From: Dermacentor variabilis
Taxonomy: Eukaryota; Arthropoda; Arachnida; Ixodida; Ixodidae
DNA length: 64,000 nucleotides
Assembly (NCBI RefSeq): GCF_050947875.1
Contig: NW_027460346.1
Coordinates: forward strand, 2,546,000-2,609,999
Direction: 5' to 3'
This document shows, piece by piece, positions 5,600 to 50,399 of this stretch. The notes under the pieces are model-generated. The model was given only the letters and a program-made list of their open reading frames with translations, ran no database searches and was not told the DNA's origin. Position 1 is the first letter of the stretch. The number at the start of each line of letters is the position of its first letter. Position numbers and translations under genes: made by a program.

Positions 5600-5719
5600 A
5601 GCCTCCGCCTTCGAGGCTGCACCGTTGTTACGAATCCCTGTAAAGGGTGCAGCACCGCACTAAGTATGACGATATGGCAGAGCCAGCTATAAAGGAAAAA
5701 AATCAAGCCGAACTCATTC

Positions 5720-7329: not shown

Positions 7330-9030
7330 AAAACACCTGCGAACGAAACGCTTCGTGGAAGGCCCCTGTTTCGGTCTTTATCCTACTCTCCCAAACTGCT
7401 GAGGCGCGTACTGGCTGGCAGCGCACGTAATGTTTTTCTTTAGGATGCTTGTTGTCCGGATAGTGCCCACAGTGGCTGATCATGGTTGTTACGTGTTTGC
7501 TGCATCTTCAGTGCAGGTAGTATGGTGTTGGTAGCGATAACGAATGAGACGAGAGAAACTCGCCCAAATTTCAGTTCTTATAGAGAAGGGAGACCTAAGT
7601 CACAGCGATATGAAGCCAACAGATAATAACGCCAAGGAAAACGTAGGGGAAATTATGTTATTTTAATTGAAATATAGAAATGATGATAAGGTTAAAAAAA
7701 ATGCAAGTAGACGAAAAAAACAACTTGCCGCCGGTGGGAGCCAAACTTTCATTAAGTTTTGGGCCATGCAAGCACGTAGTGTTGTTCTTGGGCTCATTTG
7801 ACACTTGTCTGAGTGCTATGCGTTGCTCTTTTAGCTCCAAGTATTGGTCGTCTTCAGACCATTGTGTGGCGATTCCCGGCGGTTCCTTAATTCTCTCAGG
7901 CAACGCTGCCCACGACCATGTTGGTGCTTATCAGCTGGTGGCCTACCATGATATCAATTCCAGCTTTACTGTTTGGATTGCTTTGAATCGTCGGTAACGC
8001 GGTTTCTATGGTTCTTTTTTTTTGTGTAGTTCCTGATAAGTGCTTGAGTATTCGTTCATTTTGCGCAATCTTCTCTGGACTTCGCGGCAATGCTCTTTTG
8101 ACTATATTGACCTCGTTTCTAGGACGCTTACATACGGTGCTCTTTCATGATGTTGCGTTAGCTTATTTCGGGCCTATTATTGCTGCGCTATATCCTGTGT
8201 TGCAATCGTAGCCGCCATCCGTGTAGTAGACGTGTTGATTCGTACTGCCATTGTCTTATCAATTCGATACTTTTTATTTCCCCTCTTGTTGCGTGGTTCT
8301 ATATACTTCTGGCTTAGGCATGTGAGAGCCATAAAAGACATGCCCCGCCCCTATGCCTGCTTAGAGGGGGCGCAAATGGACTCTACAGGCGTTAGTTTCA
8401 TGTCCTGGAAATGTATTCCATATGGTTGCACGAGAGCAGCATCCCGACTACGGTGACCCCGAGTTGTTAATGCTTAGTGCCTTGAAAAGCGCTTCCTTCG
8501 ACGTTTCTTTCGAGTTGCATAGGAAGATGCGAATTATTCGTGTCCTTATTTGTGCTATAAGGAGACAAAACACTTTTTGCACAACAGCGTAGCACATTTA
8601 CATTGGTGGGTTTTTTTTCGTCCTGTGCATGCCTATAATTCCTTGGTATTGGTTTCGCTTTATTGGTTCTTCGGATCGTGTCCCCCAAAATGCCCCCTTA
8701 CGTGTACAGCCGTGGCACCCTGTCAGGAGGCAGTTTCATAACACGACGTCAGATTCGCCAGTTTATTCCAATTAAGGGTCCACACGCATTGCCCTTTCTC
8801 TAACGAGTATCAGTTGCTGCTATGCTCACGCTCTCGAAGATCGTGCTATTCGCACCCTCGTCCTCTCAGTCTCGAGGATCGATTACTTGCGGAGTTTGAA
8901 ACCTCGACAGGAACGCAGTGCGGGCGTTTACACTATTTGGCGCGCGGTATTTGGAACAATTCGTGAACAGACTGCTCGTCCGCTCGGCTCGAGTGCGGTC
9001 GACAGCTCCGTAACGCAGCACGAGTCGCGC
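7330..9030. other. Intergenic stretch between repeats and the nucleolin-like gene end
   Basis: Minus-strand frames 8090-7896, 7903-7658 and 8688-8467 are open for 64-81 codons but show no recognisable domain. I see no RNA gene. It is downstream of the polyadenylation signal of the minus-strand gene. Confidence 0.4.
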
Positions 9031-9050
9031 ATCGAACTTGGTACGATTTC

Positions 9051-9056
9051 TTTATT
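9051..9056 (-). terminator. Polyadenylation signal of the nucleolin-like gene
   Basis: AATAAA on the minus strand, about 135 bp after the stop codon. The 3' UTR between them is U-rich with a GU repeat (about 9125-9160). Confidence 0.75.
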
Positions 9057-9120
9057 GAGCACAGACAAAAGTGTATAAAAAGTTGAGGGAAAAAAGGTGA
9101 AATGTAGAGAGAAAAAAAGC

Positions 9121-9162
9121 GGACAAACACATACACACACACACAAAAAAAAAAAGGAGCTT
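9121..9162. repeat. (AC)n and poly-A microsatellite in the 3' UTR
   Basis: A run of ac/aca units is followed by aaaaaaaaaaa on the plus strand. In the mRNA this becomes poly-U followed by a GU repeat. Confidence 0.7.
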
Positions 9163-9188
9163 CGAACTCTTGGGGCATCCAGGCGGCC

Positions 9189-9508
9189 TCAAGTGCGGCT
9201 CCACGAGCCTCGCCGGCCTCCTCTCCTTCCCCGTCGGCCGCCGCCGCCGCTGTTCCAGAAGAATCGGCTACCGCCGCTCCAAGCTCGGTTGTCCCAATCT
9301 TCGAGCTCGCCCCAGTCCCCGCGACCGTCCCGGTCGGAGGCCCGGCTGCCCATGCGGCTGGAGCCGCCGCCCCGGCCGCCACCGCCGCGCCAGTAGGCTC
9401 GTTCTCCTGGCCAGCTGTTCCTTCCCCAGCCTCGACCACCGCGGCTCGTGGAAGAATCGCTGTCTCCGCGGCTGTCCCGGGACTGCCGGCCGTGGTAGTG
9501 GCTGTCTT
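9189..9508 (-). CDS. Nucleolin-like gene, exon 7 (RGG/RG tail and stop)
   Basis: The acceptor is gcatttccccag|AAGAC. It encodes 105 residues rich in Gly, Arg, Ser and Trp, including STSRGGRGWGRNSW, WRGGGGRGGGSSRMG and GRRGRRGGRRGSWSRT, ending at TGA (9191-9189). Clusters like these are normal substrates for arginine methylation and bind G-rich RNA in the nucleolin/hnRNP families. The plus-strand and other minus-strand frames here are open only because the exon is GC-rich. Confidence 0.86.
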
Positions 9509-12500
9509 CTGGGGAAATGCAGGCGATGCACGAACGTTTAAAGAGTTCAAATGCTTTCGTTTCGCACTCGGTTCGAGAGTTTCGATCACTTCGACCCGTC
9601 GACGAATATGCGATGCTATACCGCGGTTGTTGGAGCCTACCTGGTCCATGCGCGTGCACTCCATCGGCCGCCTCCAGTGCCCTTGTAAGTGTGGTGGCGT
9701 TTCACTTAATGCTCACTCAGAAGTTGGCCAGTAGTGCGTTGTCATACACAGATAACTTTCTTCCCCCCACGTTTCTTCCCCGCATTTTTTTCTTATTTAT
9801 ATAGCACTATTCAGCGTTAGCTTCGGTATTCGAAGCACGTATTTTTTAACAGTCGTATTAATTTGATTCGAACGTGCTCACCGCTGCCCTAAAACATTGT
9901 AACCTTAAACGGTAAAATGTGCGCACTAAATAAAGGCAAGAACCTCACCGGCTTGAGACAAAAATATACAGAAAGAGTGAACGAACATATACACACACAC
10001 ATTATGCGTAAAGGTAGCATCGATGTTCTCAAAACTTGCAGGGGTAATGTGCAGTTCAGCGCTAGGCGTAATGTTATACATGCTGTAACATGACGCCTAT
10101 GTAGCTATCGGCGCTGTCGCATCGTTGGCTCCTGTAAATTTGTTTTGATTGATGCAAATTTTAGCCTCACAGTACGTTAAGCTTAGCATTATTTCCGGCA
10201 TTGCTACCTACAAAAATAAAAATGTGCACGTTTGTAGAAATCGCTGCGTCTAGAGTGCACTAAGCAATGATTGATTTTTATGAGAGGAGATATATTTTAT
10301 TGTCGCAACACATTTCCAATTTAAAAGTAAAACTGCAAATTTTTGCAGTTTAAAGGAAACGAGCGCTCAAATAGCGATAGCGTTAGTTTGAACGTCTTGA
10401 GCCCTTTTAGCGACACCGAATTTTAACATGAGTCTGAGTAAAGCTTGCGGGAGTCAATAACTGCGGCGCCAGGTGCATGTTACAGCATGTACGACATGAC
10501 ACATGGCACGGACGTGTAAATTGATCGACGCTACTTTTTGGCCTGACGAGTACTTGCGATGGTGTAACACAGTAAGCCCGCGTTGCTCTTGTTATTTATA
10601 GCTATAAAAATTCGAAATTTCAAAATTGCGCGTATGACCTGCTGCGCGTTTAGGCAGCGGCCAGCAGGTTGCTAAAAGCCAACGCCAAGGGGTTGTTTGG
10701 GTTCTACCTTCTTTCTGGAGTTCCTTCACAAGGCTCAATCGGATCGGATGACCGTCTATGGTGTGGCACCCAGGCTTTTGAAGGGCTCGCTTGAGGTCGT
10801 CTGTAGAGTTGAAGCACAGTCTGGCGAAGCTGGGCGAAAGAAAGACACGAAGCGTCGCTTTAGCAGATATACCTAGCAAAAAAAGTTGCCACGTTTACGA
10901 AGCTCATAAGCCGAGCTGCCTGGCAATGGTGCGCGTACTGTCTAAACAATGCTTAGTTTGCTCTGTAATTGACGCGAGACTTCTCCAGAGGTTTACGTTT
11001 ACAGCTCTACATGGCACTGTAGCCTTGGACCTGCTCTTCCTGTAGACCGGTATGCATACCAGTTATATTCCTGAGAACCGAAGATAGCCGAACGACACAC
11101 GTTAACTTCCCCCGCACACATGCGCCCGCAATCCATATCGCTTAATCGATTATCTTATTTAAGCTAAAGTAACGATCGGAGAGATCATAGCAGAATTAAA
11201 CTACTGAACAGAGAAGGCTTGCAGGAAGCTGCATTTAATATGCGAACAGGTGTGATTGCGGGAAGAAATTTAACATCAAACTACACAAGCACTGTCGGGT
11301 GATTTCAGAGTTGAAGAAATGGTAAACTGGGGGGTGGGGGGCAGCAGTTTTACACATCAGCGCGCATCCTCGTGGAATCAAGCTATGACTCAATGCAGCC
11401 ATGGGATTGCATTAGGCAATATAACATGGAGAGATAAAGGACCGATAAAGAAACCAACAAATGCGCTCTACGCACCCCTCTAGCACGGTTGTTGTCGCGT
11501 TTGTTCGATTGCCCGTTGGAAGCGTTCCGTGTTTTTCAGCTGCCTGAACGACGTCCTTGCATGACACCGAGGCCACCGTACGCAACAGTGTTATGGCCAG
11601 TTTACATTAGCGGTAGCTAGGTGGCATTGCGGTGTCGCGTGCATCGTGTTTAATTTATTGCGAGCGCACGGAGACTGTAATTAGTGATCTTTCCAAGTAG
11701 AGTTGAGCAATCTGGGGTTACAAGCATGCAGAAGCGGCGCCGGTTTATTGGAGTTAAGTTACATATGCAAAACTTCCTTGACGAGAGTCACCTGCGCCAT
11801 GTGTTACTGGCCCTCTGGAATGACCCGGGGCGATATTTTCGATCACTTTCAGGGATACGATCACTTTCGCGAGGATCACACGTAGGGGCTGACAGCATTC
11901 TGCGGCTGACACGTCGAAGTAACGCTTAACTGATAAATGAAAAAAAAAATGATGCCGTGCTCTCACGCCGCCTAAGCAGCGGAGGAAACGGATTCGCATG
12001 TCGCAATTGCTTTGCGAGTTAATGAGCGCAAAGTAAAAACAACAACAACAACAACAACGAAAACGAACACTCGAAAACGCACCTTACAAGATACAATTCC
12101 TAGAAGAATAAAGCATTTGTCTCGTTACAATAACACCCTATGGCCAGCTCGCGCGGAAAGAGAAGGACGACGGGTCATCACCGATTGTTCCGTGGTTCTT
12201 TTGCTATTGCACGCAGAAGCGTAATTCGCCAGCGTGCATATAAAATGTTCCTATCTTAAGAGATCGTCCCTGGCCAGTCGCCTCCTCTAACGTTGCTCGT
12301 TGTCGCGACAGGCCGGTTTCTCTCCGAACCACTGCAGTGAAACGCATTGCGTGTCCACGCCTGGGCGATGGGGCTCGCATCGCTCACCCATGCTTGAGCA
12401 CTTGGACGCGAGAGCAAGGGAACTGCTGTTTGAGGCGGGCCACGGTGCAATTGACGGGCAGCCGGAACAGGTCGAGCATGTTGGCCAGCGTCGTCTGCTT

Positions 12501-15349
12501 GCGCGTGGTGCACTTCTCCACCCGCACGACCTTCCCCTTGCCGACCGCTTTCTCGATGACCTTCAGGTTGGCTGCAGCCGTCTCTGGGTCGGTGTACCGC
12601 ACAAACGCCTTCCTGCGGCGACCATCGAGACACGGCGAACGTGTTGACGCGCCACGCAGGAGACGATACGCTCCATTTGCGCCACCCCCGACCATCCGAG
12701 GCCGAACTTTTTTCGTTCGTAAGTGCTATTTGCCATCGGCTGGTTGCCTTCGCTCATAGTATGTCCAGCATCAGGACTGGCTGGAATTTGCTCTTAGGAG
12801 CAATTTTAGCGTAAGTACTTTTTTTGTGAATACACGCTCTGTGTCTTAAAGAGGGTGGTGCGGGAGAATGGAGGGCAGGAAGGTTGCGAAATGCTGAGTT
12901 CGGGTGAGCGCAGTGCGACCGCCTCAAATCGCGACAAACGCTGTCAAGAAGAAGAAGAGGGAACGCGACATGAGCATCTTTAAATGCTTACGAGAGTGCC
13001 CTTGGCCGTGAAGCTGGCGAACCTCGGGATGTTCCGTAGTTTTGAAATTTCCTGTAAATAGTTCAGAGGATTCTGTAATTGCGCCATGGCCACTAGTATA
13101 AACACACACTCAGGAGCAGAATCACGGCGCCGGTTCACGCGTATAGGACAGATTCCCGAATACCGCCCGTGTGCTGGTGGTTACCCCCCGAGGACAACCG
13201 TGTCACGGACGAACGAGCACCCGCCATGGTGGCGTACAGTGGCTATGGCATTGCGCTGCTAAGCTCGCGGTCGCGGGATCGAATCCCGGCCGCGGCGGCC
13301 GCATTTCACTGGGGGCGCTTCTCCAAGAAGCGGATCGTAAGCGAGAACGAGCCGCATACAAACGCCCAGTCACCGAATCGTTGGGGTCGTTAAAATCAAT
13401 AGCGAGTGCAGTGGTCTATGACAAACTATGCCTGCGAATAGAATGCTTTAGGCGTGCTCTTTGACATACACTTTGTGATAAAGCGGAAGCCCTATAATTG
13501 TGGGCGCGGACAGGGAGGACCAAACACTTATAACTATGCAGTGCCCGTATTTACGAACTATAGTTCGTGTACGCTAGAGCACTCCACAAGAATATGCAAC
13601 GGTGAATCACGAGAGCTTTTGGGAATTTGATCCTATCTTTCTTGACGCTGTCGTCCCTGCACTTATGCCAACATATCACTTTTTTTTTAATGGTTCTCGC
13701 AAGCACCATGCACCCGAACTATGTTCGCAGTGTCGAGTTCTCGAACCGGTTATTAGTCTGTTATTCTTAGTTCAACTGCGCAAGCAGGTCTGATGAACGC
13801 AGTCTCGAGTATGCCGCGAAACCAATTAAATATTACACTCAGCTGCAAATGGAGCTGCCAGGGCGCGTTGTCTACATGGAACGCGAGGTTTATGCAGGGC
13901 GTCCTAGCTAACTTTATCCAGAGTTTTAAAATGTGCAAATGCCACGTAGCTGGACAGAGCCAAGGTAATGTTTTCATTCGCTTGGAGATACTCAGATTAT
14001 CTTTTTTTTTGCATTCCGCCTAATTACGTAATTAGTCTTAATTATGTAATCAATTTCTCAAATATTATAAATTAGATGAAAAGTGTCGATGTAAAAATTG
14101 TAGAGTGACATGAAAAGCTCCCGATACAGCTTTCTGTTGCTCGAAACGTGCTACATAAGTGTTTTTCCAAGCGTGCGAGAAGCCCGCGATTACACGCTAA
14201 CTGCCTCGAGATGCCAGTCGCGCGGCAAAACGTGGCCCGTGTACTTTTGACAAACGGTGTACATAAAGCGTGCCAGCCGACTCACTTTCCTTTGAAGACA
14301 AGCTTGATGATGTCGCCAGAGAGTTCGGTGATGTCGACAGAACGTGCCGAGGGAGTCATGGTAATTGCCAGGCTGCAGCTGTCCCTCTTTTCTGTATCGG
14401 AACGGATGAAGGAAATGGCCGCGATCGCCACGTGAAATGCAGACACGCTAATGGGGCAGTCAAAACCACGGGGGCCGCCGAAGCGGCCGAGTTTACCGCA
14501 GTATCGCTACGGCACCGCCTCTGCAAGCTAGTGGGCCTCGGCTCTATCGCGCCGTTGCCGTATACCTTTTATGAGAACGACCGTATGCGCCACAACATCC
14601 ACATCCTATAAAGCCCATATGAAATCTACGACATGCTTATTTCTGTATTGGATTCCCTACCACCCACAATTTTTATCGGATTATGAGATATTGGGGTTTG
14701 TGTGGCACACTTTTTTTTTACAAAATTTTGTTATTACATAACCCATTTTATGGCCCAATGTCGTTACTTCGCAACTGCTGCAGCAAGGACATGGGACAAA
14801 GAGGACAGAGCTTTTAATGAATGAAAATACAGCCGCTACTCTGACAGTACACGTTATTATCGTAGTATATATGACAATTTGCTGGCAGAATGCAAGAACG
14901 CTTGTCTGCCGCATTTCGGATGACGGCAAAAAGAAAAAAAAAATTGGTCGCGGAAACTAATCCGGAAACGGCAACTATACGGTGTCCTTCATTAGCCCAC
15001 TGCGCAGTTTCGAATGTTAAACGCATCGCTAACGCTAATAGCACCACTATTCGATGCTCATTCTGCACTATCGAAGTTACTACAGTGCGTAAGAATAGGC
15101 AGCGAGCTAACGGGCGCTGCCTCGCAGTATAGGTGTTGCAGCGGCACTGCACAACAAATTGACACGAAACACACTCACCGTGACTGTCGATGTAGTGGTC
15201 TGGCACGTAATCTGCAAATGGGTTGGACAAACACCGCGAAGGACGAGAAAAGCTGGAGCCGCTTAGAACCACGTTTAAAGTACAGCAGGTGGAAATTTGG
15301 TCACGAGTGACAAATTGACCCAAACAAAAACGAAACAACAACAACAACA

Positions 15350-15385
<36 letters not shown>

Positions 15386-18300
15386 AACCTCGGCGACACT
15401 GTCATCCAACCTTTTGTTTCAAAGCTACAGTGGCGCCTTTTTCACCCGTAGGGCGAACCCAGTTTCTCTGGAAGGGGCCCTGAACCACACCTCGGGCTTG
15501 GGGAAAAAAAAACAGACCACGGCTAGCATACGCTGCTGCGGACACCTCAGCGAAATTTTGCAGTTGAGCCCGGCGCGCGTATCTCGCAGGCGGAGCGCGA
15601 AGTCACCTCTCTTTCTCAAACGCTCTCTTCAACAGAAGCCTGCTCCTCGCTCTCTTCTGGACGATTTATTTCGTCATAAAGCGGATTCACATACGCGGCT
15701 GCTATTGCTAAATAGCCGACATCAATCAAGTATGGTGTCTGGATCAGTGCGCCTCTTCCTACTATTACTGTGCGTTACTGTGCCCAGGCTGAAGTATAAT
15801 GGAAAATATGCCTTCAAGTTTCGAGAATTACTCACGCTCGACCGCGGCCGCCCGCGTAGGAACTATACTTTGACTACTCATCGGTGTCGTAGCCGTTGGG
15901 TCTCGCTAATTCCGACTAGTTTTGAACACTCAACCTGTACCTCGAACCACGCGAAATTTAAGACTGCATGCCCATGGTAGAGTGTATAAGCGCGACTGGA
16001 CGAGGACGAAGAAAGAAACAGATACACAGACACAGCGCATCACTGAAGTGAAGCGCTGTGTCTTCTCTCTGTAATGATCGAACAATGGACAGCGCATCAA
16101 TATGCGGAAGCTGGATGTGGCTACTATCCATCGGTCAAATTAGCGCAGGACAAAGCCGGCCCGTACCACGTAGCACAGCCAGACCGGAGCATATGAGCGC
16201 GCACTCTAGCCCTATCGTGCACAAAACAAACCAAGCGCAGCGTTTGCTTTGTCAGGGCCGCGATTTTGTAGCGATGCCTTTTACTGTTTGCCGTCTGCTA
16301 CGCAGCGTAGATACCGCGACCGCGGCTGAGCGTACTGCGGCTCGCTGAGGACAACCACGTTTGGCGCGTTTGACTATGTTCGGCGCGTCGTAGGCGCCTA
16401 AATAGGAAATGGTGGCGGCTACGTGAACATCAAAAATCAAATCTGAACTGCGCGACACGGTGACGTTCGTTAGGCGGAGCGTTGTGGGTACGCCCCACTG
16501 CACCGTAGCCTTCGCAGTGCAAGGCATTGAAGAAGGAGCGGAAGCACCGCGAAGAGCATGTTTGATTGCCATTAACTCAGCTTCTGATGAACCCACTGAA
16601 GTACTTCTTTGCGGCAAAATATTTCTTAAATGGCCCAATTTAACTTCAAATGAATTTCTCCACTTGATAAAAAGGTGACTCAGGGCCCCTCGATAGAGTC
16701 AGACTGTGGGTCCATATTCGTGCACCGTAAAATAATTTACACCCTTAAATCGTGTGTGAAAATTTGTGTACCGTGATAAGTCACCATTTTGCTTTTTCTT
16801 GGTCTCGCGTCGCTCTGGTCTCGCTTTCAGAAACGTGCTGAAGACAAGGGAGGGGCAGGTGACTTTGGATGAGGTCCACTCATTAAAAAAAAGAATACCG
16901 GGACAAAGACTGCTCTTCCCAGCAGTATGGCATAAACAGTGGTGTATTTATTTGCCCTTGCACCACAGCTCTCGGGGACCTCGCACATCCTCCTTCCTCG
17001 GTAAGTACATGGCCAGTATTTTTCTAACGTGCTGTAATATCCCTTGCGTTTTCGCACAATTAACCAAGGTCCGGGAACGAAGGTTGCCCCGTGGCAAACA
17101 ATGGGAGAACATGTCCCACAGAATGAACGCCTCGCAGAACTCAAGCCGGCACGCGGAACGAGTCAAGTTGGCACCACTGTATTTCAAACTACGTTTCACA
17201 GCATTATTTCAAATCGGATCACGGACCATACACGTTCCGATTCTATCATTGCACGACAAAGTTGGCCAAACCGGATGGGCGACGCTTACCCTCCAGCCTG
17301 AGATCCTCGGCATCATCAGCCTTGCGCCTGCTGCCCGACTGGGCCCACCTGCCGCTCCTCCTTGCAGTGGTCTCGCCTGCGCAACAAAACTAACAAATTC
17401 AACGAGGGACGGCGCATCGCAATGAAGAGCGTATGCAAAAGTCGTAAGCCAACACGAGCTGCAGCGCTCTTGTGGCCAGACCAAGCATCTGTTCCAGAGG
17501 TGGGAGAATACCAGCTTTTTTCGAACACGAATCGAATACGAACAGTAAGTATCGAATATCGCATCAAATATCTAATAGTCAAACGCAGACGCACGTATCT
17601 ACAGCAGCAATATTCATTTCATGCTGATTGGGTACCACGCGTGTATCGACTAGTGCGAAGAGTCAACCATCCATACAGAAAACTCCAAATCGCCCATAAC
17701 TCCCATATCCAGTAATCCGATATTAAACGTAGAATCCCATACGAAAACGCGCCTTTAATATACGTCATATGATGTTACTTGATGTAGTAGTTATGGGGAA
17801 TACGGGTGTTTTCTCAGTACTGATATCAGAGACGAAGGAACAGCTTTTAAACACAAGATCACTAATTCTCACTAAAAAAACACTACGCGAACAGCCTTTC
17901 AATATCTTTAGAGCCTGGTACAAAACAAGCTTTCCAAGGATCAATGGCTGCTGTACGACTAGCTTCCCAATTATGCTAAATAAATAGTCGCTGAAATAAA
18001 AAAAATTATGGGGTTTTACGTGCCAAAACCACTTTCTGATTATGAGGCACGCCGTAGTGGGGGACTCCGGAAATGTGGACCACCTGGGGTTCTTTATCGT
18101 GCACCTGAATCTTAAGTACACAGGGTGTTTTTGCCCCACCGAAATGCGGTCGCCTTGGCGAGGATTCGATCCCGCGACCTCGTGCTTAGCAGCCCAACAC
18201 CATAGCCACTAAGCAACCACGGCGGGTAGTCGCTGAAATAAGGTCAGCCGTAAACACATCTAAAACGACCTGTTGCAAGAAAAAAACATAACAGGTTGTA

Positions 18301-21300
18301 GCATAAAAGTTAAATCTGCTACACGACCAGATTGCCAAAAATTCTAAATATCGGATTACAAGCAAGATTTACAGGTTAAAGAATTCTGAGGTTTTACGTG
18401 CCAAAGCCACAATATGATTATGAGGCACGCCGTAGTGAGGGACTACGAATGAATTACGACCGCCCGGGGTTCTTTATCACGTATCCAATGCACGGCACAC
18501 GTAAAATCTGAGGTTGACATGTAGGCTTCAGCCGCAAAACCGAAAACGAAAGCTTGCACTGTCCATTTTGCTTCTCCGTTGCTTCGAAATTGTCGTTGTC
18601 CAACTTCTGAAAATATTGCAATACTTTGTTTAGTAGGCGCGGAACAGTAATAAGGCTGACAGTCGATTGTTGCGAACTGTACGATTATCCGAATATTCGA
18701 TAATACCTAATAGTTACTTTCCGAACACAAATATTTAGTGTGTAATGTGTTCGTTCAGTATTCGAAACTTTGAATATTCGCCCACCCCCAAGTTTCCCCT
18801 TGCGTGCGCGTCAAACGAATTTTCGTAACTGCGTGCGTCCAAAAGAATGCGGAGGCTCTGCTGAACAAAAGCGGAGAGCAATTTCTGAACCGCATTATAG
18901 GCGTTGTCGCGCGCTTAGGGTCTCACAATAATTTACTCCTGGGGGTTAGTTGGTCGATAGTTGAAACCGTTGCAGTGCAAATAAAAAATGGCTGTGGCAT
19001 AGCTAAGGTTAAGCCCAGGATGCGAAGCATACTAGCCTTGATTTTAGTTGTTGAACCACTGTTTAGCCTGGTGAACTGCTGTTGCTTGGCTACATTTGGT
19101 TCGGCTAGACGAAGAAACAACTCATGCAGGCGAGCGCACGAGCTGAGACCCGGCTATGTAGCTACGCGGCCGCAAGCGAGCGCACGAGTTGAGCCTCCGC
19201 TTTTGCAGCTGTTATGACGTCATATGGGAGCTACGCGGCCGCGCGTGGCGCAGCAAGGAAGAGCGTGGTTGTGCGGCTAGCATGCTTTGCATAAAAAAAG
19301 ATAACATAAGGCGGGACACCACGGGCGCTACGCGCAACACTTATTTATTACAATTCCTTTAAGAAAAAAGAAACTGCACAGAATAACGCGCATGCCCACA
19401 GGTTCATCACGGCAAAGAAACACCCAACAACCGAATCTCGCTTACGAATATATTATGCTTGGAGCCGTGATTGGGAGACATTTAAAGCGAGATGGGTCCT
19501 TTCATATCAAGAGGCCCGGACTGCGTCTATACAATACTGTGTGTCTATTTGAAAAGTAAAATTCTGCAATTTTTTTTTCTACGTAGTGATGAACCTGTAC
19601 GCATGCGTATATTTAAAATTTTCCCGGTCTTCTATAGGGGGCTGTAGTAAATCCTTTGCGAGCGTAGCGCCAGCGGTGTTCGGTCTTCTGGGGCCGAATT
19701 CACAAACCTTCTCTTTCGTAAGTGCTCCTTGCGACTGGCCTTCACAAAAGATAGTCCAGCATCAGGATTGGCTGCATTTAGCTCTTGCAAGCAATTATAG
19801 CGTAAAAGGCTTCTGTGAACACGCCCTTGTGCATCGTGCCACTTTGAACATATACGCTCTGTTGCTTTTTCAAGCGATCGGGACGTCAGCAGTATCCAGC
19901 AAGCGTTGTCCGCCGTCCCTATATATACACAGTGCGGGAGGCCGGCATTATTTCTTGCCAACTACTTTCGGTATAGAACTTGACCGTCACGGTGGCTCAG
20001 GGGCTACGCGTTGCGTTTCAGTAAACTTAAACTGATAACCTAAACGTATACGGGCGGTTTTAATCCCTGGCGTCGCACGCTTAAATCAGCGCTGCGAAGT
20101 AGGAGAGCGCTGGCCGAGGTGCGATGCCGCAAAGCATGCCCGAGAAACGGCGTAAGCGGCCACGACGCCGGTTCACCTGCGTTTGCATCGTTTCCCCGCA
20201 TTTCCTCGCTTTATCACACACGATACCAAGGCCTATGAATACAGGAGAGAGGCGGTCAACCCGTTCGATTGGTGAAGCACCGGAATGCCGTGAATCAAAC
20301 GTGGCAGCGCCAGGAGAAGGAATGGCCGCCACGATGTTGACATCGTGGCGGCGCATCAGGCTCAGCGTCAGGTGCAATGATTATGCCAAGTGCGTTTTCT
20401 TGTTAGTATTCGGCTTGTCATTGCAAACGTTTCAGGTTCTTCCTTGTGCCTAATAAATACTGTGATGTAGGAAGGGTGAAGTCGCCAAAGAAATATCGCA
20501 GTCGATTTTGACAGGCTCAGCGAGCAATGTGTGAGCTTCTTGTCTATCCATCTAAAAAAAAAAAAAATTCTACGCACAGATTAAAACCCAGCAGCCCGAA
20601 TTCGCGCCGTATAAATTCGCATAACGGTGCGTAAATGCGAGTTTTTCAGCGAGAAACAAATGGTGTGACGAGGGGAAGGAGGGGGTGGTACCAGTGCTCC
20701 CATCTATTGGCAGGCCGCATTATTCTGTATCCCGCAATCCTGCGCAGTGGAGCGCTTTGCTTTCAGATTCTGCGATGGCAAACTAAGTGCCGGAAGCGGA
20801 GTACTTCGCCTGCGCAGCATTGTAGCGAAGCACCGTCCGAAGAAGGATGCGCGCAGAAGCAGCGAGACTGACTGCCGGCTGCGACCACAGCTCGAACCGT
20901 CTCTACACTCGTCGCTCCTGGAACTTCGAAAGCGCTGCCAATATAGTTTATGTTCAGTAGCGTTTTGGAGCACCGAAGGAGACACCCAGGAAGTGCGAAA
21001 TAAGATCTGTGACGCCTTATGAATTGCGGCCACAACGAAAGCTTCTAATTCAAAAAATTCGACGCTCGTGATAGCGTTCGTAAGAGCTGATGCTAGCTGA
21101 CCATGATGCTGGACGCATATTTAGTAAAGGCGGCCGGTCAATCGCAAACAACACATAGAAGAACTTTTTTTAACATGGAACCTGGGGCGAAATTCACAAA
21201 GCTTTTCGTTTGTAAGGGCTGTTTTTCATTAGCTGATCGCTTTCGCTAATAATTTGGCAGAAATGCTTTTAGCGTAAGAATATGGGCCCCTGGTTTTGTT

Positions 21301-23493
21301 ACGAGGAGCCGCTCCCATCAGACAAGCACTACGAACGGCTGTTAATCGGCGTCACACTGGACCCACACGTGCTATAAGTCCAGCCATCGTTTAGGGCCCA
21401 GAAAGTCGCTTAATCCGCAAACTCTTCCCAACTTTTTTTCGCGGACGTGCGGAAGACCCGTGTGAATTGAGCGAGTTGAATGGGCCCTTATAGCTATCAA
21501 AGGACCATCTTCTCGCTGTCGGGAAGAACGGCGCGTTACGTGGTGTCACCTACCGGACATTTCCCCCAGTCAACGTTCCGTTGGCTTACCACATTACCAG
21601 CGGCGGGTGAAAAAAACCGACAGAATATCCCGACCGGCCTGGTGCGAACCGCCTCGAAGAGGAAACGAAGGCCTCTCACCTGATTTGTCCTCCTCCTTGT
21701 AATACACTTGGTCGTCTTCCTCCTCGGCATCCAAGATCTCCAGGTCAGCTGAACCGTCATCGTCGTCGTCATCGTCGTCGTCGTCGTCGTCGTCTTCCTC
21801 CTCGTCCTCTTCGTCCTCTTCGTCTTCCTCATCGTCCAGGTCTTCTTCGTCCTCAACTTCGTCGTCACATTCCATGGCTATGGAAAAAGGGAAAGCCATG
21901 GCGAAAAAAAAAATCAATCAATCAATCTAACAAACAAACAAACAAACAAACAAACAAACAAACAAACAAACAAACAAACAAACAAACAAACAAACAAACA
22001 AACGAATTTTACGCTATATTATAAGCGGCAGAATTAACTGTGCTGCAGGGGACACTTGGGCCGAAGCAACGTAGGTTTTTGACGAGTCGTGAAAAGATGG
22101 TGCTTATGGGAACACGCGTACAGGAACACCCTTATGGGAACACGCTTATCGAAAGGCTTATGCTCCCCGTACAACTATTGCATTCCTTAATTCACCGACT
22201 TTCATAGCTAACAAACTCGAGGACTCGCGGGCGGTTGCGGCCATCGGATTTTCCGTAGGCTGAAAGGGCGAGAAATATGTCGCCGAGGGAAGAACGCCTT
22301 CCCGGCTATCAATGTCGGTGCTTGTGCGAATTGTGAGAAGGAGCTGTGCATTCACTTATGGTAAAGGAAAAAGCGAGCGGGGAAGGGCGCGGCTGAGGAT
22401 ATCGCTTGAGACAAGGCTCACCTGCGTATGAGGCTGCCTGCTTGGAACGCTTTGCTGTCGGGACGTCACCTACAACGAGGACAGAGAGAATGATTAGGCC
22501 GTGAGAAGCTAAGCCGCACTGATGGGCAGCGGTGCATTTTCATCGAGCAGCGCGTAACAGGCGCCCTATACTATAACCGACAAACGACACAAAATGAGCC
22601 GGTAACTTCAAAAACTTTATCTCGCCTGGAAAATAATTTCTATATACAACTCGCGGCTCACACGCTGCGAGTGGCGACGTCAGGCGCGAAGGCATGCATC
22701 GGGATCACATCTAAAGACGTGCTTTGAATACGGCCGCGCTAAGCGTCGGCCGCGAATTCCCTGCCTATTGAGCTCTCGCTTCGCGGCACGACACAATGCG
22801 GCTGAAATCGTGCAGGCCTGCTGCGTAAGAGGTGTGCGACTTGGACCTCTACTTGAACCGCGACAAAATTTTGAGCAAAACGTTGCCCGCGAAGTTGCGC
22901 CTGGCTGGAAACGCGAAGTACTTTCTATGGCGTAACTGTTTGACGTGCCGAGCACAGTACAGAACCTGCAACGCGATACTTGGCCATTCATGCGCAGCCA
23001 TTCTGACGGAGACCTTTGCACTTGTAATTTTTCCCCCCCATGCACAATCGGTATCTTAGACGCGCCTACTGCGCTTCCTTGTTAGGAACACTGAACAATG
23101 GCGACGGGGTACGGCGCATGCATAAACTTCATCGCCATTGCCGTGTTTGAGAGCGGTCTAAGAGCTAATGGCTATTGACCATCACCTCGAGTTCAGTTTA
23201 GGCGCATCGAGGAAGGTTCACGTCCGGTTTCTAATGTCGAACTCTCGCGGTCCAAATTTTGCGGCACGCTATTCGGAATCACTGCCCCTCACTAGTGTCG
23301 CGTAGCTGAACGAGGTGGCGAACTGATCAAGCACGAACTACTCGGATGATGCACCTCTGTAGAAGCAGCAATAGCTCTAAAGTTTGCGTGGTTACATGTT
23401 CCGTTCATTGAACCTAAGCGACCGCGCGTTTCAGCATTGCGTGAAGTAAACAAAGGTAGAAAATTATAAAGAACGAAGGAAGGAAGAGGGAAA

Positions 23494-23556
<63 letters not shown>

Positions 23557-26500
23557 AGTGAAAACGGCAAATGACGGGTCTGAGGTCTCCCTTTTCGCCT
23601 AGGATTTGGTTACTGCTCGAAACCACACATCAGTGAAAAAATAATTAAGCCACTACACGCTCGCGCTGCCACATCGTTCCGTAATATTGAATCCGAAGCA
23701 CGTGTGTAGACGCAGCGACATGACGCAAGGAATCTAGGGCGAAATCTAGCAAGGCTTCATAATATTACATTCGACTCATTTCAGAGAGCTCTGGCGGTGC
23801 TACTAAAGTCGTTCAAATTTTAAATTCTCGGGTTTTACGTGCCAAAAGTCCGATCTGACTATGAGGCACGCCATATAGTGAGGAACACCGCACTAATTTT
23901 GACCACCGGGGTATCTCTAACGTGCCCCCCATGCACGGGACACGGTCGTTTTTCTTTTTTTTTTTTGCATTTTGCCCCCTTCGAAATCTACTAAAGTCGT
24001 GTAGGACAGCTTTAAAAACTGCACGACACGTAGCCTTCAAAAATGAATCGCCTGAAAATCGTTTTCTATATATATATATAAGCGGCCCTTGAAGCGAAAT
24101 ATGACCTCATTATTGCCAATACAAAATACGTGTGCTCAAAGTAAGGCCTAATTCTGGCCATACACGACCTATACCGTAGTTCTCCGAAACGAGATACTGC
24201 AAGTAAACCGAAAGAAACACGGAGTACACGACACGTGCAATCCCCAATTTTCGCGCTTCACCTTCACTACGTCATACAAACAAGGCCGTGTTTCTCTACC
24301 CTTACGAGTACCATAAGTATGCGAGTGACACGGTTCGCTCCGGAAGCAAACAAAAGCACTCGTCGAATTTGCCCGTGGATGTATCCGTCAAAGGTTTCGT
24401 AGTCATTGCGCAAGTGTAATATCTCTCGCTGAGCTCAGTCGCAAGGCTCCTGCAGCGCGGCGGACGATCCAAGAGAGCGAGGAGCGTTGCCTGCCTCAAA
24501 TTGTGAAGCCTGTGAGCGATGAAAGTTCTACAGGGGATTCATGTATACTCCGCCCGATGGCAGGTCCGGTCAGGCGCTGTGGCTTCCAAACTTTTGACGC
24601 TAAATGTAATATGGGAACATGACGAAATTGAAAAAAAAAAACGAGCAACTAAATTACCAGAGCCCGCATTAAAAAAAAAGTTCTAAAAAGAATGTTCGTT
24701 AGCGCAAGTGTCGACCACCCGTGATGTTGGCATACTATAGCGAAAGCAGCCGGCTAATGGCAAATATTTTACAAAGAGCTTTGTGAATTAGGCATCAGTA
24801 CAAAGCGAGCTGCGTAGCGCTTAGTTTGGGGTCCGTGTTCAGGCTGCGCTGTGCTGAAATTATTGCATTGCATATGAGCGGTCTAGCAAGCTTGTCTTTA
24901 GCCCCTAAGCCTGTGTCAAGTTGAGAAACCGCGTAGTTGCAACGCTGTGACCAAAAAAATCAGAGGCCGAATTCACGAAACTTTTCGTAAGTACTCTTCG
25001 CTAATATGTACAGCATTACGATTGCCTGGAATTCGCTCCATCGGACAATTATATGGGAAGCGCTTTTTGTAAATACGGGCCATTGATTAGTTTAAGTAAA
25101 ATATTGTGAGCACGCTCGGAATTTCCGCTCTCCAGTGGGGGGCGCAGCGAAAACGCTTGGCACATAAACAGAGCTCAAGCTGAAATGCCAGCATAGCCTG
25201 CCTTGTAAGGCCCGATTCATTACACAATCATCCTGCTCGTCCCGTCACCGTCACGGCACCGTTTTACGTCAGAAGGGAGAGTTTCATCGCACTTTTCCCT
25301 TCAAAAACGGGACGCCGGCGACGTTGGGAGCATCGGCCAACGTCGCCAGCGTCCCGTTTTTCACAAGAAACCGGCGCGCCGCGCCGCACCGCAGCCGTGA
25401 CTAAGTGCGTAAGGCGCCTCGCTCGGCTGCGGAAGATGCGTGGTTTGATCCCTACCGCCTGGCACCCACCGGTATATAAGGCGGGCACAAGTAGGCCCTC
25501 GGCCAGTCGTCCGGCTTTCTAGGGTTGCGTTGCTTGGGAAAGGTTCACACTGACCGCTGTACTTACTGTGCAAGAACTAAGAAACTGAGCAACACAACTC
25601 TCATAAGGTCAGCGGCGACGTTGGGAGCATCGGCCAACGTCGGCGGCGGCCTGTTTATCGCGAGAAACCGGCGAGGAAACGTTCTCCCCTGACGGAACTG
25701 GTTCCCTGCTGTTGCGGGACGGGTAGGGGCGGGGCGGGGCGGGGCGCTGCGGATGGTTGCTGTTTGAAGTAGGCCTAAGAGGAAACGTTCTCCCCTGACG
25801 GAACTGGTTCCCTGCTGTTGCGGGACGGGTAGGGGCGGGGCGGGGCGGGGCGCTGCGGATGGTTGCTGTTTGAAGTAGGCCTAAGAGGAAACGTTCTCCC
25901 CTGACGGAACTGGTTCCCTGCTGTTGCGGGACGGGTAGGGGCGGGGCGGGGCGGGGCGCTGCGGATGGTTGCTGTTTGAAGTAGGCCTAAGAGGAAACGT
26001 TCTCCCCTGACGGAACTGGTTCCCTGCTGTTGCGGGACGGGTAGGGGCGGGGCGGGGCGGGGCGCTGCGGATGGTTGCTGTTTGAAGTAGGCCTAAGAGG
26101 AAACGTTCTCCCCTGACGGAACTGGTTCCCTGCTGTTGCGGGACGGGTAGGGGCGGGGCGGGGCGGGGCGCTGCGGATGGTTGCTGTTTGAAGTAGGCCT
26201 AAGAGGAAACGTTCTCCCCTGACGGAACTGGTTCCCTGCTGTTGCGGGACGGGTAGGGGCGGGGCGGGGCGGGGCGGTGCGGATGGTTGCTGTTTGAAGT
26301 AGGCCTAAGAGGAAACGTTCTCCCCTGACGGAACTGGTTCCCTGCTGTTGCGGGACGGGTAGGGGCGGGGCGGGGCGGGGCGGTGCGGATGGTTGCTGTT
26401 TGAAGTAGGCCTAAGAGGAAACGTTCTCCCCTGACGGAACTGGTTCCCTGCTGTTGCGGGACGGGTAGGGGCGGGGCGGGGCGGGGCGGTGCGGATGGTT

Positions 26501-26954
26501 GCTGTTTGAAGTAGGCCTAAGAGGAAACGTTCTCCCCTGACGGAACTGGTTCCCTGCTGTTGCGGGACGGGTAGGGGCGGGGCGGGGCGGGGCGGTGCAG
26601 ATGGTTGCTGTTTGAAGTAGGCCTAAAATCGTGCAACTGCGATGAAGGGTCACGTAACCGAAGTCCTAATCGCGTGGAACTACGATGAAGAGCCACGTAA
26701 CCGAATTTCCACTTACCAAACGCCCGTTCGTCGTCCTCGTACTCATCGGCACGGGATAGCTTGTTGTCCCTGTCCACCGCAAGTTTCTCGGTCTGTTCGA
26801 GGGGAAAAAGGAAGAAAACGATCACGGTCACGAAGGCTGCTCGGTACCGCAAAGTAAACGCGACAAACGGTGAAGGCATGCCACACAAACAGCAGCTTAC
26901 TCGCTCGCCAGAAGGGCCAGGTGCCGTTGTCTCAGTCGTCCCTTTAGAGGGCAT
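9189..26954 (-). CDS. Nucleolin-like RNA-binding protein (acidic, two RRMs, RGG tail), 7 exons
   Basis: A spliced gene: exons 26954-26901, 26792-26717, 21877-21680, 14391-14286, 12612-12388, 10829-10708 and 9508-9189. All introns are GT-AG. Junction phases are 0, 1, 1, 2, 2, 1 and agree on both sides each time. Coding length is 1101 nt, giving 366 residues. Order of parts: N-terminus 1-44; acidic exon 45-109 with a 13-Asp run (72-84); RRM1 about 115-183 with RNP1 KGKKAFVRY at 143-151; RRM2 about 188-255 with RNP2-like MLDLFRLP and RNP1 HGFARLCF (219-226); Gly/Arg-rich tail 262-366. Nucleolins pair an acidic region with RRMs and an RGG tail and act in rRNA processing in the nucleolus. This protein is shorter than the vertebrate protein and has two RRMs, not four, so orthology is an inference. 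Confidence 0.88.
10708..10829 (-). CDS. Nucleolin-like gene, exon 6 (RRM2 end)
   Basis: The acceptor is ctttctttcgcccag|CTTCG and the donor AGAAG|GTAGAA. It encodes FARLCFNSTDDLKRAL and TIDGHPIRLSLVKE, that is RNP1, helix 2 and strand 4 of RRM2. The split codon GG|C supplies the Gly before FARLCF. Confidence 0.88.
12037..12060. repeat. (AAC)n microsatellite
   Basis: About seven aac units in intron 5 of the nucleolin-like gene. Confidence 0.75.
12388..12612 (-). CDS. Nucleolin-like gene, exon 5 (RRM1 end, RRM2 start)
   Basis: The acceptor is gtcgccgcag|GAAGG and the donor CATGG|GTGAGC. The 225 nt encode KAFVRYTDPETAAANL with VVRVEKC (strand 3, helix 2 and strand 4 of RRM1). LANMLDLFRLPVNCTVARL and FPCSRVQVLKH follow (strand 1 to strand 2 of RRM2). 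Only about a dozen residues separate the two RRMs. Confidence 0.88.
12699..12838 (+). repeat. MITE of the ggcc-gaattcacaaa family (diverged copy)
   Basis: It starts gaggccgaac with ttcgttcgtaagtgc. It contains gtccagcatcaggactggctg and ends ttagcgtaagtac then tgtgaatacac. The middle matches the copy at 19690-19826 closely (gtccagcatcaggattggct there). It lies in intron 4 about 90 bp upstream of exon 5. Confidence 0.6.
13220..13318 (+). repeat. tRNA-derived SINE, head only
   Basis: The head cccgccatggtggcgtacag is followed by tggctatggcattgcgctgc and a B-box-like gggatcgaatcccggccgcg. The conserved 3' body seen in the full copies at 34453 and 18000 is absent. It is in intron 4 of the nucleolin-like gene. 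Confidence 0.75.
13840..14200. repeat. Possible dispersed repeat in intron 4
   Basis: AT-rich block with gcaaatgccacgtagctgga and nearby attacgtaattagtc. The style (mixed GC ends, AT-rich middle) suggests a non-coding mobile element, but no terminal repeats were found and no second copy is in the window. Confidence 0.3.
14286..14391 (-). CDS. Nucleolin-like gene, exon 4 (first half of RRM1)
   Basis: The acceptor is ttccgatacag|AA after a pyrimidine-rich run, and the donor GGAAA|GTGAGT. It encodes KRDSCSLAITMTPSARS and then DITELSGDIIKLVFKG, the region from strand 1 to strand 2 of an RRM. Its 3' phase (2) joins exon 5 to complete the RNP1 motif KGKKAFVRY, strong support for the junction. Confidence 0.82.
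15335..15386. repeat. (CAA)n microsatellite
   Basis: About 17 caa units with two one-base interruptions, in intron 3. It makes a spurious poly-Asn frame on the plus strand. Confidence 0.85.
18000..18226 (-). repeat. Full-length tRNA-derived SINE with 15-bp target duplication
   Basis: On the minus strand it reads from the head cccgccgtggttgcttagtg through ggctatggtgttgggctgct and the B-box region to the tail tgcctcataatcag and an A-rich end. The sequence tagtcgctgaaataa occurs at 17985-17999 and again at 18227-18241, a perfect target-site duplication. This is the clearest recent retroposition in the window. Confidence 0.9.
18382..18501 (-). repeat. Truncated SINE (3' body)
   Basis: Minus-strand SINE body: gaggttttacgtgccaaagc, then atgattatgaggcacgccg and ggggttctttatcacgt. 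The tRNA-like head is missing. Confidence 0.8.
19690..19826 (+). repeat. MITE of the gggcc-gaattcacaaa family
   Basis: The left end ggggccgaattcacaaacct and right end aaaaggcttctgtgaacacg form an imperfect inverted repeat. Its interior is shared with the copy at 12699-12838. Confidence 0.65.
19988..20076 (+). repeat. Possible degenerate SINE head
   Basis: gtcacggtggctcaggggct is followed about 45 bp later by gcggttttaatccctggcg, resembling the A and B boxes of the SINE head with diverged sequence between. Confidence 0.35.
21184..21291 (+). repeat. MITE of the ggggc-gaattcacaaa family
   Basis: The ends cctggggcgaaattcacaaa and gtaagaatatgggcccctgg pair as inverted repeats, the outer bases cctggggc and gcccctgg perfectly. 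It is 108 bp and has no coding content. Confidence 0.65.
21680..21877 (-). CDS. Nucleolin-like gene, exon 3 (acidic tract)
   Basis: The acceptor is ctttttccatag|CC and the donor TCAG|GTGAGA. The 198 nt encode an Asp/Glu tract with a 13-residue Asp run, then GSADLEILDAEEEDDQVYYK. The Asp run is written by a GAC/GAT trinucleotide repeat (about 21759-21797 on the plus strand as gtc/atc), which could vary in length between individuals. Acidic stretches like this in nucleolin bind histones and basic ribosomal proteins; that role is carried over from the family, not shown here. Confidence 0.85.
21909..22002. repeat. (AATC)n and (AAAC)n tetranucleotide tract beside exon 3
   Basis: A short run of aatc units (about 21910-21926) is followed by some eighteen caaa units (21929-22002). 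It begins only about 30 bp upstream, in transcript sense, of the exon 3 acceptor at 21878. Confidence 0.88.
23491..23557. repeat. (AAAT)n tetranucleotide tract
   Basis: About 16 uninterrupted aaat units in intron 2 of the nucleolin-like gene. Confidence 0.9.
23823..23992 (-). repeat. Truncated, diverged SINE
   Basis: Minus-strand body with gggttttacgtgccaaaag, tatgaggcacgcca and a region matching the tail side of full copies. The head is missing and a poly-T run (about 23952-23965) interrupts it. Confidence 0.75.
24964..25083 (+). repeat. MITE of the ggcc-gaattcacaaa family
   Basis: The left end gaggccgaattcacgaaact and the right end ctttttgtaaatacgggcc are imperfect inverted repeats. A related piece in the other orientation may lie at 24690-24795 (aaagagctttgtgaattagg). 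Confidence 0.6.
25312..25378 (+). repeat. Palindrome-bearing 60-bp motif, copy 1
   Basis: gcgacgttgggagcatcggc and caacgtcgc form a hairpin-capable palindrome (GACGTTGG / CCAACGTC), followed by cgtcccgttttt and gaaaccggcg. The same arrangement occurs at 25610-25674. Confidence 0.7.
25378..25515 (+). repeat. tRNA-like SINE head, second type
   Basis: gccgtgactaagtgcgtaag and gtggtttgatccctaccgcc resemble A and B boxes of RNA polymerase III promoters with two and one mismatches. The sequence between (cctcgctcggctgcggaag) looks like an anticodon-arm region. It is probably the head of another tRNA-derived SINE and not a working tRNA gene. Confidence 0.45.
25610..25674 (+). repeat. Palindrome-bearing 60-bp motif, copy 2
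   Basis: It repeats the copy at 25312 (gcgacgttgggagcatcggc, caacgtcg, then gagaaaccggcgag) and runs directly into the first unit of the minisatellite. Confidence 0.7.
25673..26626 (+). repeat. Minisatellite: nine 106-bp units, G-quadruplex-prone
   Basis: Units start at 25673, 25779, 25885, 25991, 26097, 26203, 26309, 26415 and 26521: exactly 106 bp each, 954 bp in total. Every unit carries aacgttctcccctgacggaa and gggtaggggcggggcggggc, a run of five or more G-tracts. Units 1-5 have cgctg and units 6-9 have cggtg at the same place; unit 9 has one more change (gtgcag). They are otherwise nearly identical. The array lies in intron 2 of the minus-strand nucleolin-like gene, so the G-rich strand is the template strand. 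Confidence 0.95.
26717..26792 (-). CDS. Nucleolin-like gene, exon 2
   Basis: The acceptor follows a pyrimidine run, ttcccctcgaacag, and the donor is GTTTG|GTAAGT, a perfect consensus. The 76 nt encode TEKLAVDRDNKLSRAD and YEDDERAF, already acidic in its second half. It ends in phase 1. The intron upstream is only 108 bp. Confidence 0.82.
26901..26954 (-). CDS. Nucleolin-like gene, exon 1 (start codon)
   Basis: The ATG at 26954-26952 opens MPSKGTTETTAPGPSGER (18 codons). The donor is GAGCGA|GTAAGC at 26900. It ends in phase 0 and joins an exon that also starts in phase 0. The start is inferred as the only ATG giving this joined frame. The frame is open further upstream, but that part reads through the CCAAT-bearing promoter-like sequence. 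Confidence 0.75.
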
Positions 26955-27245
26955 CACGCTCAAGGCAGATAGGAGCCCCGGTGCTACGGTGCATCTGCGG
27001 TGACTGATGGCGGACGTATGCGACGGCAGCAGCTCACAAATGGAACCCGGGGGCTGCCCGGGGTGCGCGCTCACGAGCCAGCTGGTGACGCGGTCGGCCG
27101 CGATTGGTCGAGGCTGCAAGCCGACGAAGAAAACGAGGCGCACGCGTTGTGCTAAGCGCGCTCATTCTCAAAGGCCGCCGGTGAAGAAGAGGAAGCGAAG
27201 AAAAGTTTGCCGACAAAAAGTTTGCCCTACGCAGTTGGCAGGATG
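26955..27245 (-). promoter_or_regulatory. Probable promoter and 5' UTR of the nucleolin-like gene
   Basis: A GC- and CpG-rich stretch lies directly upstream of the ATG. It contains ACCAAT on the minus strand near 27103-27108, a CCAAT-type box about 150 bp from the ATG. No TATA box stands out, as is common in housekeeping genes. It is closed off at about 27250 by a (GA)n run and a LINE. The transcription start is not determined. Confidence 0.45.
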
Positions 27246-29780: not shown

Positions 29781-29963
29781 TAGGCAGCAAGTAGCTCCCG
29801 GTTACACCCACGGAAAGGCATCCCGAGTACGGCGGTCAGGCCAACGAGAAGCTCGACCGCGACATCAGCGTCGAGGAGGTGCGAGCGGCCCTGCACGAAC
29901 TAAACATCAAGTCGGCGGCCGGCCCGGATCACATGTCTAACAGAGCGCTCAAGAACCTCAGCG

Positions 29964-36141: not shown

Positions 36142-36165
36142 TCTGCTGGAGGCGCTTGTGCATTC

Positions 36166-39830: not shown

Positions 39831-39929
39831 GACCCGCCACCGCAAGATGACAAGGATGACGACGCCTTCCTTGGAATAATAAGCGCGGAAGACTTCGCTG
39901 AACAGGAACGAGCAGACCCGGAGCTAAGA

Positions 39930-50398: not shown

Positions 50399-50399
50399 A

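What the first reader, a model, noticed from the sequence alone, without database searches (positions are those of the whole stretch)
9030..27245. A seven-exon nucleolin-like gene reconstructed from phase-matched splice sites
Seven short open pieces spread over 18 kb join with GT-AG introns, and all six junctions agree in phase. The sum is exactly 367 codons including the stop, in a sensible order: acidic tract, RRM1, RRM2, RGG tail, AATAAA. RNP1 of RRM1 (KGKKAFVRY) and of RRM2 (HGFARLCF) are each completed only across a splice junction. The nucleolin-type layout is compressed to 366 residues with two RRMs, which may be an arachnid form.
Basis: partly seen in the sequence, partly recalled or inferred. 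Interest (0 to 1): 0.75.

Follow-up and report, generated by a model that had tools for sequence, protein, structure and literature searches.

The report
A second tick nucleolin gene

Summary
The gene is real, but the seven-exon model is incomplete. The described pieces lie on the minus strand and join to exactly 366 residues. Tick relatives show three skipped exons (22422-22469, 17290-17376, 15179-15211) and an optional 60-nt exon (12992-13051). All four keep the frame, so phase agreement could not reveal that they were missing. The corrected gene has 10 exons (422 residues), or 11 with the optional exon (442), from ATG at 26954 to the stop ending at 9189.

The layout is acidic tract, two divergent RRM folds and an RG-rich tail. 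The same genome carries a second, ordinary nucleolin gene on contig C1. Four of its exons have identical lengths (54, 33, 106, 225 nt), and every exon compared has the same phase. The window gene is therefore an intron-bearing duplicate ("nucleolin B"). It has changed more: 121 of 135 residues kept against 131 of 135, each versus Rhipicephalus sanguineus.

The optional exon adds 20 residues at the beta2-beta3 turn of RRM1; relatives occur with and without it. Two RRMs are ordinary for nucleolins outside vertebrates. This is a new member of a known family; splice-controlled RNA binding is possible but unproven.

The parts
26901..26954 (-). Exon 1, from ATG (54 nt)
   Evidence: Starts MPSKGTT as P0009/P0017 start MPSEGTT; no in-frame stop within 50 codons upstream
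26717..26792 (-). Exon 2 (76 nt)
   Evidence: GT-AG, phase 0 to 1; P0015 match E 7e-4
25673..26626 (.). Nine 106-bp tandem copies inside intron 2
22422..22469 (-).
   Evidence: GDVPTAKRSKQAASYA in line with P0002, P0004-P0006, P0009, P0013-P0015, P0017
21680..21877 (-). Exon 4 (198 nt), acidic tract
   Evidence: P0002 match E 1e-19
17290..17376 (-).
   Evidence: P0013 match E 2e-5; P0002, P0009
15179..15211 (-).
   Evidence: P0002 and P0005 matches E 0.002; same length as exon 6 of the sister gene
14286..14391 (-). Exon 7 (106 nt), first half of RRM1
   Evidence: P0006 match E 2e-13
12992..13051 (-). Optional exon 7b (60 nt), 20 residues at the beta2-beta3 turn of RRM1
   Evidence: 14 of 20 residues as in P0009; same place and length in P0011, P0012; skipped in 13 of 19 relatives
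12388..12612 (-). Exon 8 (225 nt), end of RRM1 and start of RRM2
   Evidence: P0002 match E 1e-37
10708..10829 (-). Exon 9 (122 nt), end of RRM2
   Evidence: P0005 match E 6e-18
9189..9508 (-). Exon 10 (320 nt), RG-rich tail and stop
   Evidence: P0002 match E 3e-56
9051..9056 (-). AATAAA

Best explanation
The locus is a functional protein-coding gene of a tick: a second nucleolin gene ('nucleolin B'), made by a DNA-level, intron-bearing duplication of the tick's ordinary nucleolin gene and diverging faster than it. Shown here: 10 exons plus one optional exon, intact frame, nucleolin layout (acidic tract, two RRM folds in the model of a close relative, RG tail), relatives in Dermacentor, Rhipicephalus and Amblyomma, and a sister gene in the same genome. 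Inferred: the protein works like other nucleolins. The acidic tract would engage basic proteins (histones, ribosomal proteins), the RRM pair would bind (pre-)rRNA, and the RG tail would help to hold the protein in the nucleolus. The optional exon lengthens the beta2-beta3 turn of RRM1 by 20 residues and would tune or weaken that domain's RNA contact. Targets, tissue and the use of each isoform are unknown.
For: Spliced-size relatives: contigs of at most 1391, 1554, 1868 and 1570 bases encode P0002, P0003, P0006 and P0012, so I infer transcripts (or retrocopies) that join these exons. Exon-by-exon tblastn in order. All 10 introns of the 11-exon form are GT-AG and in phase. Two beta-alpha-beta-beta-alpha-beta units in the AlphaFold2 model of P0002 (154-215 and 222-293; 10-residue pLDDT means 71-89 over 151-290). 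Foldseek: 173 PDB chains at E <= 0.001; nearly all of the 50 listed are RRM proteins or complexes with them, nucleolin at ranks 4 and 50. RRM2 profile: best of 33 PDB sequences is nucleolin, E 7.7e-12. Sister gene on C1 with equal lengths of exons 1, 6, 7, 8 and equal phases. Tree: window clade and ordinary-nucleolin clade separate at 100/99, and R. sanguineus has a member in each.
Against: No RNA reads of this species were available. The Pfam RRM_1 match of the window protein or its pieces stays below the cut-off (13.8-20.4 against 20.7 bits), two ordinary-type relatives match no RRM family at all, and RRM1 alone matches no RRM in PDB by sequence. RNP1 aromatic positions are partly replaced, so RNA binding may be weak. 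Foldseek TM-scores are low (0.13-0.21 by query, 0.20-0.39 by target): most of the query is disordered and the domain orientation is unsure. The best single stretch of the nucleolin match has i-Evalue only 0.054; the low E sums four repeats. Three D. silvarum models (P0013-P0015) end early or leave the frame, so copies of this type also decay.
Confidence: 0.85

Rival explanations
1. One reading: one compressed seven-exon, 366-residue nucleolin is the gene's main product, and the other four pieces are not used or only rarely.
For: The seven pieces join in frame; each extra exon can be skipped without a frame shift. P0004, a gene model, lacks the acidic exon, so skipping models exist.
Against: Exon 5-6 sequence (LEDY.P) is in 14 of the 15 relatives that reach it; P0018 reads on into other sequence there. 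Exon 3 sequence is in 9 relatives, including one on a 1391-base contig (P0002). No relative found has the seven-exon form.
Confidence: 0.05
2. A decaying duplicate (pseudogene in the making) that is still open by chance.
For: Faster change than the sister gene (14 against 4 differences in 135 residues versus R. sanguineus); D. silvarum models P0013-P0015 leave the frame in the optional exon.
Against: Open frame and splice borders intact over 10 introns; kept at 85-90% in the RRM region in Dermacentor and Rhipicephalus rows and present in Amblyomma; transcript-size contigs.
Confidence: 0.07
3. Not a nucleolin but another acidic-RRM-RG protein that resembles it by convergence.
For: RRMs are degenerate by sequence; Pfam also lists weak RRM_MARF1 matches in 5 of 15 family members; SLIRP and RBM19 follow nucleolin in the RRM2 search.
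Against: Intron-for-intron match to the C1 gene, whose MPPKKTA start, acidic tracts, two RRMs and RGG/FGG tail are the nucleolin layout; nucleolin is the best PDB match and 6 of the 33 listed sequences are nucleolin.
Confidence: 0.1

Closest known systems
Ordinary nucleolin gene of the same genome (C1, 102350210 to beyond 102382592)
   Same: Acidic tracts, KLKLEDYVPE / LRLEDYVPD stretch, two RRMs, RG tail; exons 1, 6, 7, 8 of the same length (54, 33, 106, 225 nt), all compared exons of the same phase
   Different: 85 of 135 RRM-region residues identical; longer, K-interrupted acidic tracts and a long RGG/FGG tail; no exon 3 and no optional exon found there. The 3' end of my C1 model is not resolved
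Vertebrate nucleolin (PDB 9cb5, 1fje)
   Same: Layout; best PDB profile match of RRM2; among the fold matches
   Different: Two RRMs instead of four; RRM1 not recognised by sequence
Plant/yeast nucleolins and C. elegans NUCL-1 (PMC13266012 and PMC9633708, passages)
   Same: Two RRMs, acidic region, RG domain
   Different: NUCL-1 has its RG domain at the N-terminus; here it is C-terminal
Drosophila Modulo (PMC11879677, passages)
   Same: Arthropod homologue of nucleolin
   Different: Modulo has four RRMs; this has two

Membership tests
Nucleolin family (three domains as in PMC13266012, passages) | Acidic N-terminal region | tested here: met
   47 D/E among 65 residues from residue 61
Nucleolin family | Two or four central RRMs | tested here: met
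   Two RRM-type units in the model of relative P0002, matched to tandem RRM structures. By sequence alone RRM2 is below Pfam's cut-off and RRM1 is not detected
Nucleolin family | C-terminal glycine/arginine-rich (GAR) domain | tested here: met
   107-residue tail with 28 G, 22 R, 9 RG, 4 RGG, no FGG or GGF
Nucleolin family | Canonical RNP1 residues (consensus recalled, not from a call; not part of the cited definition) | tested here: not met
   RRM1 GKKAFVRY lacks the aromatic at position 3; RRM2 HGFARLCF lacks the one at position 5 (translation)
Nucleolin family | Common descent with nucleolins of other animals | tested here: inconclusive
   Descent shared with the ordinary tick nucleolin shown; the link to non-tick nucleolins rests on the profile match, no tree
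Nucleolin family | Nucleolar location and RNA binding | not testable with these tools
   Needs experiment
Drosophila Modulo type (PMC11879677, passages) | Four RRMs | tested here: not met
   Two RRM units only in the relative's model

The most novel reading that the evidence does not exclude
Ticks of the Dermacentor-Rhipicephalus-Amblyomma group evolved a second nucleolin whose RNA binding is switched by splicing: a 60-nt exon, not found in the sister gene, is included or skipped exactly at the beta2-beta3 turn of RRM1, giving two protein forms with different RNA recognition. Where the exon leaves the frame (as D. silvarum models suggest) it would act as an off-switch.
Probability: 0.2. Interest if true: 0.5.

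Novelty: new member of a known kind. Interest (0 to 1): 0.33.

Why it matters
Of the 14 relatives with a source name, 12 are called uncharacterized or hypothetical, one is unnamed and one bears an unlikely name, so the corrected model gives the family an identity: a nucleolin duplicate beside the ordinary one. It offers a natural test of how a core nucleolar protein splits its tasks after duplication, and of whether an optional exon at an RRM turn changes RNA choice. It also shows that matching phases and an exact codon sum do not prove that a reconstructed gene is complete.

Tried and rejected
A motif scan for RNP1/RNP2 over the span found no further RRM piece. Pfam RRM_1 stays below its cut-off for the window protein (8 of 15 family members match RRM_1 at E <= 0.1); P0016 and P0010 match no RRM family. 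Single-sequence PDB searches were weak (best nucleolin E 0.0011; for P0016, only nucleophosmin E 0.56). An RRM1-only profile found no RRM in PDB. Rfam over 8000-28500 and a tRNA scan of the window found nothing. The optional exon of the window and of the Amblyomma-type rows share 3 of 20 residues, and 372 and 499 of 2000 shuffles reach their scores, so across those genera only place and length agree. A search for the optional exon in the sister gene's locus gave chance-level matches (best E 0.12, opposite strand, whose output was cut). Papers: seven searches showed no title on a tick nucleolin gene among the papers listed (6, 6, 20 of 67, 10, 20 of 128, 20 of 412 and 4); that does not prove absence. 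I opened five papers (PMC9633708, PMC2711064, PMC11879677, PMC13266012, PMC7937244) and saw passages only. One possible mismatch remains open: relative P0010 has a short stretch between acidic tract and linker for which I found no exon in the C1 gene.

Full report
What was checked. The finding claims a seven-exon, 366-residue nucleolin-like gene on the minus strand of 9030-27245. I read the sequence, rebuilt the pieces and joined them. The pieces 26954-26901, 26792-26717, 21877-21680, 14391-14286, 12612-12388, 10829-10708 and 9508-9189 give 1101 nt, 367 codons with the stop, as claimed; AATAAA is at 9056. The junctions inside RNP1 of RRM1 (KGK|KAFVRY) and RRM2 (HG|FARLCF) are as described.

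Why the model is incomplete. A protein search with an early joined sequence found 14 relatives, a profile search added two and a search from the Ixodes pacificus relative added three: 19 in all, P0002-P0020. Named sources are Dermacentor silvarum, D. albipictus, Rhipicephalus appendiculatus, R. sanguineus, R. microplus, Amblyomma americanum, Ixodes scapularis and I. pacificus; five have no name. The alignments show segments that the seven-exon model lacks. In the window these lie, with GT-AG borders and matching phase, at 22469-22422 (48 nt), 17376-17290 (87 nt), 15211-15179 (33 nt) and 13051-12992 (60 nt). Each is a multiple of three, so leaving any of them out keeps the frame. By simple splice-site and open-frame criteria the span holds 259 distinct candidate internal exons, so phase agreement is weak evidence; homology decides. 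tblastn of the relatives meets the exons in order, strongly for the long ones and weakly for the short ones.

The corrected gene. Ten exons, 422 residues; with the optional 60-nt exon, eleven exons and 442 residues. Layout: N-terminal segment with the KR-rich exon 3; acidic tract (47 of 65 residues D/E); linker ending LRLEDYVPDHYIDSH; RRM1; RRM2; 107-residue tail with 9 RG. The ATG rests on relatives, because no in-frame stop precedes it within 50 codons.

The optional exon. Of the 19 relatives, 13 skip it (P0002-P0008, P0010, P0016-P0020; P0005 has two extra residues there; P0010, P0016 and P0018-P0020 are of the ordinary type), 3 include it in frame (P0009, P0011, P0012) and 3 D. silvarum models read it in a shifted frame (P0013-P0015). 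P0012, and P0002, P0003, P0006, come from contigs of 1.4-1.9 kb, too short for a gene with such introns, so I infer spliced transcripts of both kinds, in different relatives; no species was shown to make both forms from one gene. The window's exon shares 14 of 20 residues with that of P0009, and 3 of 20 with the Amblyomma-type rows, not above shuffles. In the AlphaFold2 model without it (P0002) beta2 ends at residue 180 and beta3 begins at 183; with it (P0012) residues 158-172, between beta2 (149-155) and beta3 (177-183), fall under pLDDT 50. The exon therefore lengthens the beta2-beta3 turn of RRM1.

Fold and family. The P0002 model has two RRM-type units (154-215 and 222-293), with 10-residue mean pLDDT 71-89 over 151-290; the rest is disordered (whole mean 52.8). 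Foldseek lists 1358 PDB matches up to E 10 and 173 up to 0.001; nearly all of the 50 shown are RRM proteins or complexes with them (a ribosome chain stands at rank 25), with nucleolin at ranks 4 and 50; TM-scores are low. A profile of eight RRM2 rows finds nucleolin first among 33 PDB sequences (E 7.7e-12 summed over its repeats; best single stretch i-Evalue 0.054), with five more nucleolin sequences in the list and SLIRP second. An RRM1 profile finds no RRM, and Pfam RRM_1 stays under its cut-off for the window protein. Both RNP1 motifs lack one usual aromatic position (consensus recalled), so RNA binding may be unusual.

A duplicate, not the only nucleolin. The genome of the window (G000, 2.48 Gb; the window is C98:2546000-2609999) was searched with the R. 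microplus relative P0020: 24 of 24 candidates were scored and 9 matches reported. Five lie on C1:102370243-102382927, two are the window's exons 8 and 9, and two lie on C9. No other locus of the window's type appeared, but a search with the window protein itself did not complete. Reading the C1 locus gives an ordinary nucleolin: MPPKKTA start, long K-interrupted acidic tracts, KKLKLEDYVPESCIDSQ, the same RRM pair and a long RGG/FGG tail; its 3' end is not resolved. Its exons 1, 6, 7 and 8 have exactly the lengths of the window gene's (54, 33, 106, 225 nt); exons 2, 4, 5 and 9 differ in length; the phases agree throughout. Exon 3 and the optional exon have no counterpart that I found there. A tree of 16 rows over 135 columns separates ordinary nucleolins (I. 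pacificus, R. sanguineus, R. microplus, one unnamed, this genome's C1 copy) from the window clade at 100/99; R. sanguineus has one of each. The window row sits next to D. albipictus (82/81). No second-type protein of Ixodes was found, so the duplication arose either after Ixodes split off or earlier with loss or missing data; the unrooted tree cannot tell. Against R. sanguineus the C1 protein keeps 131 of 135 residues and the window protein 121 of 135, 4 against 14 changes.

How it most likely works. From the family (PMC13266012, passages; PMC9633708, passages; PMC2711064, passages): a nucleolar protein whose acidic tract engages histones and serves pre-rRNA processing, whose RRMs bind RNA and whose RG domain contributes to nucleolar organisation. 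For this protein those steps are inferred, not shown. The faster change, the shorter RG tail and the optional exon suggest a specialised rather than housekeeping role, but tissue and targets are unknown.

Novelty. A new member of a known family; two RRMs are ordinary outside vertebrates. Somewhat unusual are a nucleolin duplicate in ticks and an optional exon at an RRM turn. Of ten other long open frames of the window given to Pfam, eight carry mobile-element domains.

Noticed in passing
L022 5085-5843 minus (G000:C9:135420001-135430000): An intronless 252-codon open frame related to the tick nucleolins (KKIRLEEFIP..., both RRM halves in one frame, about 21-30% identical in tblastn, no RG tail): probably an old retrocopy, a third nucleolin-like gene.
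   Followed up: partly
L023 about 5539-5973 plus (G000:C9:139075001-139085000): A second copy of that intronless relative, with stops inside.
   Followed up: no
25673-26626: Nine 106-bp tandem copies, 99% matches, GC-rich, inside intron 2 of the gene.
   Followed up: no
P0013 and P0015 (Dermacentor silvarum models): Relatives with a long extra N-terminal part; one member of the alignment matches Peptidase_M13_N. They also read the optional exon in another frame: chimeric annotation, or truly fused and decaying copies.
   Followed up: no
47-805 minus, 2641-3171 minus, 29904-31967, 36103-37509, 39777-40520, 46514-47098 minus, 49700-50722, 61585-62121: Mobile-element domains by Pfam: Transposase_1, RT RNase H, reverse transcriptase (twice), Retrotrans_gag, Integrase_H2C2, endonuclease of a reverse-transcribing element, DDE_Tnp_4.
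   Followed up: partly
about 18230-18000, 13320-13250 and 28450-28370: By eye, tRNA-like B-box stretches (GGGATCGAATCC and like) and recurring blocks as in tick SINEs (recalled); ARAGORN and, for 8000-28500, Rfam report nothing.
   Followed up: no
12612 acceptor: D. albipictus P0005 has two extra residues (KGNRRKAFVRY) at the exon 7/8 junction, as if from an acceptor six bases upstream; in the window no AG stands there.
   Followed up: no
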